Shown one piece after another: positions 1,541 to 3,338 of a stretch of 7,436 bases of DNA (the first letter of the stretch is position 1; each line of letters starts with the position of its first letter). The position numbers and the translations under genes were made by a program. A model generated the notes under the pieces. It was not told the origin of the DNA. It did not search any database and worked only from the letters and a program-made list of their open reading frames with translations. This DNA comes from Planctomycetia bacterium (lineage in GTDB: Bacteria; Planctomycetota; UBA1135; GCA-002686595), in contig SXKQ01000200.1 of assembly GCA_005778045.1 (NCBI GenBank), positions 1-7,436 on the forward strand, given 5' to 3'.

Positions 1541-1553
1541 ATTTGCCTCAAAT
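1541..1553. promoter_or_regulatory. Perfect 5-bp inverted repeat over the -35 of the riboswitch promoter (possible operator)
   Basis: ATTTG (1541-1545) and CAAAT (1549-1553) form a perfect inverted repeat separated by CCT. It overlaps the -35 hexamer TTGCCT of the plus-strand promoter. A second palindrome, CAAGCGCTTG, sits at 1512-1521 in the same divergent intergenic region. Such sites can be repressor operators, but short palindromes arise by chance. No regulator can be named. Confidence 0.3.
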
Positions 1554-1571
1554 GCAACTTCGTAGTATAGT
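1543..1571 (+). promoter_or_regulatory. Sigma-70-type promoter driving the riboswitch RNA
   Basis: The -35 is TTGCCT (1543-1548), the spacer is exactly 17 nt, and the -10 is TATAGT (1566-1571). Transcription would start at about 1577-1579, only a few bases before the P1 stem of the c-di-GMP aptamer. The block is a clear AT-rich island in very GC-rich surroundings, and its position just before an aptamer on the same strand supports it. The minus-strand iscU-like gene starts about 80 bp away, so the region is divergent. I see no equally good minus-strand promoter. Confidence 0.7.
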
Positions 1572-1583
1572 TAGGCGCTTCGA

Positions 1584-1694
1584 GGATCGAGCGACAAGGG
1601 CAAACCCACGGTGACGTGGGGACGCAAAGCCAGAGGGCCCACGGGGAAACCCGGGGGCAGCCTAGCTGCCGAACCGATGACTTGCGCGGGATCC
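1584..1694 (+). promoter_or_regulatory. Cyclic di-GMP-I (GEMM-I) riboswitch aptamer
   Basis: Senses c-di-GMP, the second messenger of the motile-to-sessile switch. The P1 arms are GGATC..GCG (1584-1593) and CGC..GATCC (1685-1694) around a small purine internal loop. The conserved AAGGGCAAACC (1596-1606) is followed by P2, CCCACG (1605-1610) capped by GTGA (1611-1614) and closed by CGTGGG (1615-1620). This is the GNRA loop that docks into P3. The near-invariant GACGCAAAGCC is at 1621-1631. The P3 side ends in hairpin GGCAGC/GCTGCC (1656-1670) and the hallmark ACCGATG (1673-1679). The middle G of AGGG, the family's G20 that contacts the ligand, is kept, which favours c-di-GMP over the cGAMP-preferring GEMM-Ib variants. 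No terminator or start-codon-masking platform is visible directly behind P1. Confidence 0.92.
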
Positions 1695-1985
1695 AAAGAA
1701 GCGGCCGGGCATGCCCCGCGCCGCGTGCGACGCGTGGAGCGTCGTCCGGACCCACACCGGACTTCGCTCCCGGGTCTCCCGCTCCGCGCCTTCGCGCGCG
1801 GCTGCGGAGATCCCGCCGGCGCGGCCGGGGTGTGCTCCAACCCGAGTCACCGCCGCCATGCACACCCACTCGAACCCGCACGTCGCACCTGCCGCGAGCT
1901 CGCGCTCGCACGCCGGAACGACCCACGGCTCGCAAGGTGCGCCGGAGCGGCGGGCTCGGGCCGGCCGGGGAGCGCCGCGCGCAGG

Positions 1986-2168
1986 TGGGGACTTCGCGCG
2001 CGGTCGTAGAGGGAGGAGCGGTGCGTCGCTCGCGCTGTGGGGACGGCGCGACGCGTGCCGTGGAAGAGGAGACGGCGAGGCCGTGGAGCAGTGGGGACTC
2101 TCCCGCGCGCTCGCCCGGCTCGCGCAGGGTGCGCGTCTCTCGCGCGCCCGACGGGACGCCATGGGGAC
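1986..2168 (+). repeat. Four dispersed TGGGGAC repeats in the ncRNA body, three in hairpin loops
   Basis: Identical TGGGGAC occurs at 1986-1992, 2038-2044, 2092-2098 and 2162-2168, at spacings of 52, 54 and 70 nt. The first three are GTGGGGAC and lie in predicted hairpin loops: stems 1975-1982/1996-2003, 2030-2035/2046-2051 and 2085-2088/2100-2103. The hairpin loops at 1734-1738 (GTGGA) and 2062-2071 (GGAAGAGGAG) add more exposed GGA, and GGGAGGAG is apparently unpaired at 2011-2018. The aptamer holds the same heptamer at 1617-1623. GGA in loops is what CsrA/RsmA-binding RNAs use, but high GC makes both GGA and hairpins common. Confidence 0.45.
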
Positions 2169-2233
2169 CGCCGCGGCTTGGCCGCGCCGGGGTGAACCGC
2201 CGATCCGCTGAACCAGCGGCTCGCGAGCCAAAC

Positions 2234-2276
2234 GCGAAGGCATGGGGCCCGCGCTCCATGCCTTCGCTCTTTTCTC
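2234..2276 (+). terminator. Strong intrinsic terminator ending the plus-strand RNA
   Basis: A perfect 12-bp stem, GCGAAGGCATGG (2234-2245) with CCATGCCTTCGC (2256-2267), encloses a 10-nt loop. It is followed by TCTTTTCTC (2268-2276). The U-rich tail exists only for plus-strand transcription; on the minus strand the stem is followed by GTTTGGC, a poor tract. It may still slow minus-strand transcripts of the sigma-factor gene, which ends at 2325, so partial bidirectional use is possible. A second GC hairpin (2279-2284/2295-2300) lies just beyond. Confidence 0.85.
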
Positions 2277-2324: not shown

Positions 2325-3338
2325 TCAGGCGTCGGCGGACGAGCGCAGGCGTTCCTGCAGACGCTCGAGCAGCTTCATGTGGATCTTGCACACGCGCGAC
2401 TCGCTCAGGGCCTCGAGCTCACCAATCTCGCGCAGCGACAGATCTTCCCAGTACTTGAGGTAGACGATGCGCGCCTCCTGTGGCGTGAGCTTCTGCGCGA
2501 CCAGCGCGAGCAGGTCCTCACGGGTCAGCCGCTCGCCGGGCGCCTCGGTGCATGGGTCGGGCATGACCTCGATGCCCACGCCCTCGTCCTCGTCGGTCGG
2601 CGCACGGGCCGGCCCGGGAGCCGTGGCGAGACCACGCAGGAAGCCCGTGGCGTACTCGAGCGGGTCCATGCCCAGCTCGGAGGTGAGCTCGGCCTCAGAC
2701 GGCTGGCGCGCAAGCCGCGCGCGGAGCCCCTCGACGACGCGCTTGTGGCGCTCGAGGCGCGCTCGCCAAGGCCGCGGGAGCCAGTCCTGAGAACGCAGCT
2801 CGTCGAGCAGCGCACCGCGCAGTCGCAGCTCGCAGTAGGACTCGAACGGCACGCCGCGACGACGGTCGAAGCCCTCGATCGCCGCGATCAGTCCGACGTT
2901 GGCCGCAGTGAGCAGGTCGCCGGTGTCGACGGTGCGCGGCAGGCGCAGCGCACATCGGCGCACGAAATCCGTGACGAGGCCCTGGTACAGCTCCACCAGT
3001 GCGTTGCGCTCGTGCGCGCTGGGGCGACGCACGAACTTGCGCCAGAGCGCCGCGGCGGGATCCAGAGGGCGCGTGCGAGTCTGGCCTGCGGACTTGCGCG
3101 GCGGCGCCACGTCGACGGCGCGAGCGGTCGGCGGCGCGACCGGGGTGAGCAACGCGATGCGAGCTTTTCCCGCGGTTTTCACCGCCTTCCTGACGACGCG
3201 AGCCCCCTCGCCCTTGCGGCGAAGAGGTACGGCCGCGGAGTGCAGCGGCGGACTTGGCACGATCGAGAGGACTTGTTCGGGACTCAAGCACAACGCGCGC
3301 TGCGAGGCCAGTCGCACCCCCGCGAGAGGGCGCGTCAC
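2325..3338 (-). CDS. FliA/WhiG-type (sigma-28-like) RNA polymerase sigma factor
   Basis: Alternative sigma factor that directs RNA polymerase to a motility- or development-type regulon. Region 2 spans about 98-190: LWRKF, LVTDFVRRCALRLPRTVDTGDLLTAANVGLIAAIEGFD, then FESYCELRLRGALLDELRSQDWLPR. Region 3 follows (about 191-236). Region 4 is at about 281-330: KLTPQEARIVYLKYWEDLSLREIGELEALSESRVCKIH, a helix-turn-helix with the SESRV signature. The 337-aa longest form carries about 95 basic, Pro/Ala-rich residues before the core, whereas FliA is usually near 240 aa. GTG at 3336-3338 has no visible Shine-Dalgarno, while GTG at 3180-3182 (residue 53) is preceded by AGGAAGG (3185-3191) and gives 285 aa; the true start may be there. 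It lies 50 nt after ybeY, with phoH-ybeY upstream. No anti-sigma factor FlgM or flagellar genes are in view, so the FliA symbol is withheld. Confidence 0.9.
   Translation of the reverse strand: MTRPLAGVRLASQRALCLSPEQVLSIVPSPPLHSAAVPLRRKGEGARVVRKAVKTAGKARIALLTPVAPPTARAVDVAPPRKSAGQTRTRPLDPAAALWRKFVRRPSAHERNALVELYQGLVTDFVRRCALRLPRTVDTGDLLTAANVGLIAAIEGFDRRRGVPFESYCELRLRGALLDELRSQDWLPRPWRARLERHKRVVEGLRARLARQPSEAELTSELGMDPLEYATGFLRGLATAPGPARAPTDEDEGVGIEVMPDPCTEAPGERLTREDLLALVAQKLTPQEARIVYLKYWEDLSLREIGELEALSESRVCKIHMKLLERLQERLRSSADA

What the first reader, a model, noticed from the sequence alone, without database searches (positions are those of the whole stretch)
1543..2276. A c-di-GMP riboswitch heads a ~700-nt RNA with no recognisable gene
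A sigma-70-like promoter, a canonical GEMM-I aptamer and a strong terminator lie in order on the plus strand. Between aptamer and terminator I find about 540 nt of hairpin-rich sequence and no credible protein. GEMM-I riboswitches normally sit in 5' leaders of genes. A free-standing precedent I recall is the abundant merRNA of Bdellovibrio. This could be a c-di-GMP-gated regulatory RNA or a c-di-GMP buffer.
Basis: partly seen in the sequence, partly recalled or inferred. Interest (0 to 1): 0.85.

Follow-up and report, generated by a model that had tools for sequence, protein, structure and literature searches.

The report
c-di-GMP riboswitch heading a hairpin-array RNA
In a group of planctomycete bacteria a sensor for the signal molecule c-di-GMP sits at the front of a roughly 700-letter RNA that seems to encode no protein but carries a conserved row of elements showing the same six letters, which looks like a new signal-controlled regulatory RNA family.

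Summary
Observation confirmed. In this planctomycete contig a sigma-70 promoter (1543-1571), a c-di-GMP-I-GGC aptamer (1590-1674; 59.3 bits, cut-off 59) and a terminator (2234-2275) bound one non-coding unit. Tools add: (1) The unit recurs, normally once per genome, in one clade: 57 loci (56 RNAs, window included), 50 converging with a sigma-70 gene. (2) Its 3' half is an array, mostly of 3-4 elements 42-70 nt apart, each showing UGGGGA, often as a GGGG loop closed by U-A on covarying stems (covariation 0.625 against 0.207 shuffled), with GGAGGAG in 37 of 53. (3) The array persists without a detectable aptamer in 6 of 54 array-positive genomes, so it seems the core and the aptamer an optional input; a pure c-di-GMP buffer is disfavoured. 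(4) Sister lineages carry the aptamer in cis before a sigma gene. CsrA and Hfq were not found. Most likely: a c-di-GMP-controlled multivalent decoy RNA for an unidentified partner. Ligand, gating and partner are inferred, not shown.

The parts
1543..1571 (+). sigma-70-like promoter TTGCCT-17-TATAGT; its spacer holds AATGCAACTTC, similar in many relatives
   Evidence: 52 of 57 loci against 12 of 1140 control stretches; TGC[AG]ANTTC 34 times at the promoters of 56 loci and 4 times elsewhere in 387 kb
1577..1702 (+). closing helices around the aptamer: 1577-1581/1698-1702, 1584-1588/1690-1694, 1591-1593/1685-1687, 1595-1598/1681-1684; a transcript start near 1577 is inferred
   Evidence: RNAalifold of 7 close relatives (coordinates); single-sequence fold; most of these pairs do not vary among the 7, so there is little covariation support
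1590..1674 (+). c-di-GMP-I-GGC riboswitch aptamer (RF03167)
   Evidence: 59.3 bits, E 2e-12
1707..1837 (+). long central arm between aptamer and array, less conserved
   Evidence: RNAalifold of 7 close relatives
1974..2004 (+). array element H1, hairpin with UGGGGA at 1986-1991
2012..2018 (+). GGAGGAG linker between H1 and H2; GAGGAG again at 2066-2071 between H2 and H3
   Evidence: GGAGGAG 4.71 per kb in arrays against 0.086 in flanks; present in 37 of 53 arrays
2018..2061 (+). array element H2, hairpin with UGGGGA at 2038-2043
   Evidence: covariation on A4; model R2 match 2014-2123, 69.5 bits (the window is one of the model's own sequences)
2074..2115 (+). array element H3, hairpin with UGGGGA at 2092-2097
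   Evidence: covariation on A4
2153..2198 (+). array element H4, UGGGGA at 2162-2167, predicted in a 7-nt bulge below a hairpin rather than in a loop
   Evidence: RNAalifold; some relatives have similar bulges, modestly above control
2234..2275 (+). intrinsic terminator ending the RNA
2325..3338 (-). sigma-70 family gene (regions 2 and 4) converging with the RNA
   Evidence: Pfam; a homolog converges at 50 of 57 loci, window included

Best explanation
A stand-alone non-coding RNA of about 700 nt (1577 to about 2275) with an input module, a c-di-GMP-I-type aptamer at its 5' end, and an output module, an array of mostly 3-4 structured elements that each display UGGGGA, often with GGAGGAG linkers, ended by its own terminator. 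Shown by comparison: the unit, the lack of coding signal, the structure and conservation of the array, arrays without aptamer, and RNAs away from the sigma gene. Inferred: c-di-GMP binds the aptamer and changes how much of the array is made or exposed; the array works in trans as a multivalent decoy or scaffold for an RNA-binding partner that recognises UGGGGA and perhaps GGA in the linkers. The partner is unknown; CsrA and Hfq were not found. RRM proteins occur in all 23 genomes of this group tested and are a possible, unproven candidate. An early intrinsic terminator between aptamer and array is not conserved (3 of 55), so gating would work by refolding, stability or another route. My probability is about 0.95 for a conserved aptamer-headed structured ncRNA and about 0.5 for the decoy or scaffold mechanism.
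For: Aptamer. Of 58 sigma-baited loci 42 carry it, and the window; the other 16 are 6 array-only, 6 with neither, 2 whose genome has the RNA elsewhere (L036, L051) and 2 cut by contig edges. Array: TGGGGA with a stem of 4 or more pairs in 94 of 170 copies in 56 loci, against 3 of 46 and 3 of 65 on the two strands of the flanks and 0 of 11 antisense. On 27 units 82.5% of cells pair against 59.3 +- 1.5 shuffled (0 of 500), double changes at 16 of 18 pairs (8 of 500), covariation 0.625 against 0.207 +- 0.021 (0 of 500), best slid control 0.272. Model R2 finds 54 of 154 class genomes, one match each, and 15 of 392 in a phylum sample, all of them among those 54. R2 also finds aptamer-less arrays that were not in the model (L038, L039, L040, L012, L016 at E up to 1e-5; L045 at 0.013), where Rfam finds nothing at E up to 0.5. 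Non-coding. At L105, L107 and L111 the RNA lies beside other genes; the genomes of L105 and L107 have the sigma gene elsewhere without it (L036, L051). TGGGGA hairpins are not enriched in 1.2 Mb sampled from two genomes.
Against: No expression, binding or genetic data. No partner identified: RRM presence does not discriminate (4 of 6 genomes without the RNA and 5 of 6 of the cis group have one). No conserved gating structure was found between aptamer and array. 76 of 170 UGGGGA copies have no uninterrupted stem of 4 pairs, and the bulge context exceeds control only at strict scores (8 of 77 against 2.7% at 13, but 18 of 77 against 17.8% at 9). GGAGGAG is absent from 16 of 53 arrays. Two RNAs have one UGGGGA copy only (L050, L104). 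The synteny with the sigma gene also fits a local role.
Confidence: 0.55

Rival explanations
1. Local (antisense-type) control of the convergent sigma gene: c-di-GMP-dependent transcription or read-through past the terminator interferes with the sigma gene or pairs with its mRNA.
For: The RNA converges with the sigma gene at 50 of 57 loci. In sister lineages the aptamer lies upstream of a related sigma gene on the same strand at 34 of 38 loci. Antisense-acting c-di-GMP-I riboswitches have been proposed (PMC9943018, passages read).
Against: A terminator ends the RNA before the sigma gene. At L105, L107 and L111 the RNA keeps aptamer and array with no sigma gene in the DNA held. A row of similar covarying elements is not needed for antisense pairing (inference). 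In six genomes forming one side of a branch the sigma gene persists without the array; one of them, G022, has a weak aptamer match elsewhere.
Confidence: 0.17
2. Base-pairing sRNA: the exposed UGGGGA or GGAGGAG pairs with C-rich stretches of target mRNAs or of rRNA.
For: An invariant G-rich loop on variable stems is also what an antisense seed could look like.
Against: A six-letter seed repeated 3-4 times is short (inference); UCCCCA occurs in the 5' regions of the cis-sigma orthologs of 16 of 18 genomes but at scattered places; Hfq was not found in 22 genomes. Genome-wide targets were not tested.
Confidence: 0.15
3. c-di-GMP reservoir, as proposed for merRNA of Bdellovibrio.
For: Aptamer at the head of a non-coding RNA; the merRNA authors propose storage (PMC3627812, passages read).
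Against: The more widely kept part at this place is the array, which persists without a detectable aptamer in 6 of 54 array-positive genomes. Abundance is unknown.
Confidence: 0.05
4. Ordinary cis riboswitch with an overlooked short ORF or downstream gene.
For: The usual arrangement of this riboswitch class; sister lineages show it.
Against: Phase test and gap lengths, no Pfam match over a cut-off, terminator at the end, next gene on the opposite strand.
Confidence: 0.03

Closest known systems
EutX / Rli55 (B12 riboswitch sRNAs that sequester the response regulator EutV)
   Same: A riboswitch heads a non-coding RNA whose hairpins act in trans by titrating a protein (PMC7602753, passage read)
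   Different: Other ligand; ANTAR hexaloops have conserved A at 1 and G at 4 (PMC8934654, passages read), here U-GGGG-A; ANTAR was not found in 22 genomes, but that search rang in no control genome, so it is inconclusive; in EutX/Rli55 the ligand ends transcription early, whereas no conserved early terminator was found here; titration is inferred here
merRNA of Bdellovibrio
   Same: c-di-GMP riboswitch in an RNA without a conserved ORF (445 nt; PMC3627812, passages read)
   Different: Its authors found no conservation outside the Bdellovibrio lineage; here a clade-wide array that also exists without aptamer. Sequences were not compared
CsrB / RsmZ-type CsrA sponges (architecture recalled, from no call)
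   Same: Several GGA-containing sites in loops and linkers of one RNA
   Different: Loop is GGGG with its A in the closing pair; no CsrA match in 31 of 31 class genomes, against 120 of 294 in a phylum sample
c-di-GMP-I-GGC riboswitch family RF03167
   Same: Aptamer matches just over the curated cut-off
   Different: Family is typed cis-regulatory; no gene lies downstream on the same strand here

Membership tests
c-di-GMP-I-GGC riboswitch (RF03167) | score over the curated cut-off of the covariance model | tested here: met
   59.3 bits against 59; 10 of 11 related loci scanned match RF03167 or RF01051
c-di-GMP-I-GGC riboswitch (RF03167) | binds c-di-GMP | not testable with these tools
   binding cannot be measured here
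c-di-GMP-I-GGC riboswitch (RF03167) | cis-regulation of a downstream gene | tested here: not met
   non-coding region and terminator downstream, next gene on the other strand; met by position in the sister lineages
CsrB/RsmZ-type CsrA sponge | host encodes CsrA | tested here: not met
   0 of 31 class genomes; control: 120 of 294 in a phylum sample; the window's own genome is not held
CsrB/RsmZ-type CsrA sponge | repeated GGA sites in loops and linkers | tested here: inconclusive
   UGGGGA and GGAGGAG repeat, but the hairpin loop itself is GGGG with its A in the closing pair
EutX/Rli55 | hairpins with ANTAR-type hexaloop, A at 1 and G at 4 | tested here: not met
   the array hairpins read U-GGGG-A; in A4 this is 27 of 27 by construction, since units were chosen by the motif
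EutX/Rli55 | ANTAR protein in the host | tested here: inconclusive
   0 of 22, but no control genome rang
merRNA | c-di-GMP aptamer in an ORF-less RNA | tested here: met
merRNA | very high abundance | not testable with these tools
   no expression data
merRNA | sequence homology | not tested
   the merRNA sequence was not fetched

The most novel reading that the evidence does not exclude
A new RNA-based control system: in planctomycetes without detectable CsrA or Hfq, a single c-di-GMP riboswitch per genome controls a multivalent decoy RNA that titrates a so far unknown RNA-binding protein recognising UGGGGA, so that the second messenger reaches many targets through one RNA; the sensor module sits in cis before sigma genes in sister lineages and has been dropped in others.
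Probability: 0.4. Interest if true: 0.9.

Novelty: new variant of a known kind. Interest (0 to 1): 0.82.

Why it matters
Riboswitches that control a trans-acting RNA rather than a gene were described as rare in the one paper on this that I read passages of (PMC3627812). Here a conserved family exists, with a sharply defined repeated element and natural aptamer-less versions as built-in controls. The complete genomes of Poly30, Pla163 and Pla86 carry it (that these strains are in culture is recalled). That would make two questions testable: what c-di-GMP controls in these bacteria, and what takes the place of CsrA- and Hfq-centred RNA regulation in them.

Tried and rejected
CsrA sponge: rejected, 0 of 31 class genomes, 120 of 294 in a phylum sample. 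Hfq-dependent sRNA: Hfq 0 of 22, five control genomes rang. ANTAR: 0 of 22, control silent, left open. Hidden protein: rejected. Early intrinsic terminator as gate: 3 of 55. UCCCCA before the cis-sigma orthologs: present in 16 of 18 stretches at scattered places, no consistent site. GGDEF count as a sign of aptamer need: all 47 genomes have GGDEF, so not decisive. UGGGGA hairpins in other transcripts: 7 of 375 copies in 1.2 Mb have 6 or more pairs, 3 of them in the RNA itself; other motifs 0.3-2.1%, so background. RRM as partner: 23 of 23 of this group (two of them, G016 and G019, with only weak array matches), but also 9 of 12 others. Bulge test for copies without hairpin: 18 of 77 against 17.8% control at score 9, 8 of 77 against 2.7% at 13.

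Rows dropped or double: L084 as a duplicate of L083. L033 and L088 share 123 identical bases at contig ends and are the two ends of one RNA, so 57 near loci are 56 RNAs. One search counted 57 other sequences: those long enough, L151 included. One search left out the distant loci, L151 and L033 (56 left); searches also L088 (55 left; 53 of them with two or more motifs in the array counts). A4 left out L001, L003, L081 and L033 as near-copies or fragments and one of two units of L005, and took only units 53-55 nt apart. L025 and L052 (contig edges) were not counted in the tree's changes. One search covered 88 sources, not every locus held.

Full report
Where it is. The window is planctomycete DNA: its sigma-70 protein used as bait found 58 loci in genome records, the closest (L001) 94% identical; record titles that name a phylum name Planctomycetota or planctomycetes, the others say only bacterium. 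No whole genome is held for the window. The finding lies between a NifU_N-like gene and a convergent sigma-70 gene, followed by ybeY, phoH, a CTP-transferase gene, a prenyltransferase gene and a purA-like gene.

Check of the observation. The best Rfam match of the aptamer is RF03167, c-di-GMP-I-GGC, at 59.3 bits with a cut-off of 59. A promoter pattern, written after seeing the relatives, recurs at 52 of 57 loci against 12 of 1140 control stretches. No protein is supported: six overlapping ORFs have no Pfam match over a cut-off, and in the alignment of 1700-2233 gaps are mostly not multiples of three (5 of 6 for L002, 5 of 5 for L003, 4 of 7 for L004, 9 of 10 for L007, 6 of 9 for L005; L001 has none), with substitutions even over the phases. 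The sigma gene has its substitutions mainly at the third position; three of its alignment gaps are of one base (L001 one, L004 two).

Distribution. A covariance model of the aptamer and its flanks (R1, 11 sequences; its E-values are rough) matches the window and 42 of 58 loci at E up to 0.001, 93 of 154 genomes of the class, one match each except G093 with two, and 111 of 343 of a phylum sample, where several genomes reach the 9 candidates that were scored. Ninety-six distinct loci were compared: 57 near (window included), 38 distant and one weak one, L151. L033 and L088 are two ends of one RNA split over contigs, so the near loci are 56 RNAs. In the near group the RNA converges with a sigma-70 gene at 50 of 57; L088 and L094 end at the edge of the DNA held, and L097, L104, L105, L107 and L111 show no such gene in it. 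The genomes of L105 and L107 have the sigma gene elsewhere, without the RNA (L036, L051). In the distant group the aptamer lies upstream of a same-strand sigma gene at 34 of 38; L114 and L134 are cut by edges, and L138 and L146 (both G093) have none. L134 belongs to G037, which also has an aptamer-less array. Eighteen near genomes carry a closer relative of that cis sigma (53-65% identity) besides weaker ones, the convergent sigma among them at 33-40%, so the convergent sigma is a paralog and the aptamer has a different partner in the two groups; the direction of that change was not determined.

The array. In near RNAs TGGGGA is the 6-mer most often present three or more times: in 44 of 57 sequences of that call, which include L151. 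Copies per RNA from 130 to 900 nt after the start of the aptamer model in 56 loci: none in 1 (L088, cut off), one in 2, two in 10, three in 26, four in 15, five in 2. One further copy lies in the aptamer of the window itself (1617) and is not counted. With at least 4 pairs including the closing U-A: 94 of 170 in the RNA, 3 of 46 and 3 of 65 on the two strands of the flanks, 0 of 11 antisense. Of 113 steps between neighbouring copies 98 are 42-70 nt and 67 are 46-55 nt. For 27 units of two neighbouring elements 53-55 nt apart (A4) 82.5% of cells pair against 59.3 +- 1.5 in shuffles (0 of 500); 16 of 18 pairs have changes on both sides (8 of 500 shuffles reach that); the covariation score is 0.625 against 0.207 +- 0.021 (0 of 500), with slid controls of 0.105-0.272. 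The two pairs without change are the U-A closing pairs; units were chosen by the motif, so its invariance there is by construction, while the stems were not selected. Shuffles do not allow for relatedness of the sequences; the slid controls do. In the window's H4 the UGGGGA is predicted in a bulge; strong similar cases exist in relatives, but as a class they exceed control only at strict scores (8 of 77 against 2.7% at 13). GGAGGAG occurs at 4.71 per kb in arrays and 0.086 in flanks, in 37 of 53 arrays.

Array without aptamer. A model of the unit (R2) finds 54 of 154 class genomes, one match each, and 15 of 392 in a phylum sample, all among those 54. Six of the 54 have no R1 match: G025, G026, G027, G038, G053, G061. 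In the sigma-baited loci R2 finds arrays at the same convergent place at L038, L039, L040, L012, L016 and, weakly, L045, where R1 found none and Rfam nothing at E up to 0.5. L185 and L186 (G037, G038) were read directly. Of these 8 aptamer-less loci 6 have the promoter pattern before the array; L040 and L045 do not. On a tree of 59 sigma proteins the array-only rows need 4 changes, though starred branches alone force only 1; the six rows with neither aptamer nor array need 1. One of those six genomes, G022, has a weak aptamer match elsewhere (24.7 bits). Counts of changes do not tell gain from loss; repeated loss of the aptamer is my reading.

Mechanism. The conserved loop on variable stems, its repetition and its spacing fit a binding site shown several times to one partner (inference). 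CsrA was not found in 31 of 31 class genomes, although the same search finds it in 120 of 294 of the phylum; Hfq was not found in 22; ANTAR is inconclusive; RRM proteins are in 23 of 23 genomes of this group, 4 of 6 without the RNA and 5 of 6 of the cis group. The same hairpin is not enriched in 1.2 Mb of two genomes. How c-di-GMP would act is open: an early terminator is not conserved (3 of 55). The helix 1584-1588/1690-1694 around the aptamer is a possible switch, by inference only. Ligand identity rests on the Rfam match.

Comparison and novelty. The nearest working analogue is EutX/Rli55; the nearest with the same ligand class is merRNA. Neither is matched in all its defining features. Ten full-text searches listed no title or abstract start that describes this RNA; I read passages of PMC3627812, PMC9943018, PMC7602753, PMC8934654, PMC2864571 and PMC11109978 and of the other papers only listings. 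The library holds open-licence papers only, so this is not proof of absence from print.

Noticed in passing
L112, L115-L133, L135-L137, L139-L145, L147-L150: Sister lineages: the aptamer lies about 220-660 nt upstream of the matched part of a same-strand sigma-70 gene, and some promoters look sigma-28-like (TAAA and GCCGAT about 16 nt apart, e.g. L116, L117; consensus recalled), which suggests self-control of that sigma gene.
   Followed up: partly
L138 and L146 (G093): The only class genome with two aptamer matches; neither lies near a cis or convergent sigma gene in the DNA held.
   Followed up: no
L090 and L097: The terminator hairpin itself has the U-GGGG-A loop.
   Followed up: no
L185, L186, L038, L040 between promoter region and array: Aptamer-less RNAs have a 5' part of very roughly 100-200 nt that may hold another, unrecognised domain.
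   Followed up: no
L005, between terminator and sigma gene: About 600 extra bases, with what looks like an open frame, separate the RNA from the convergent sigma gene, unlike in its close relatives.
   Followed up: no
L199 near 10618, minus strand (G013, Pla163): A hairpin of about 10 pairs with U-GGGG-A loop outside the array, next to a terminator-like stretch.
   Followed up: no
   Followed up: no
window 1617-1622: The aptamer of the window and its closest relatives itself contains TGGGGA (GTGGGGACG), as part of its second stem; not counted with the array.
   Followed up: no
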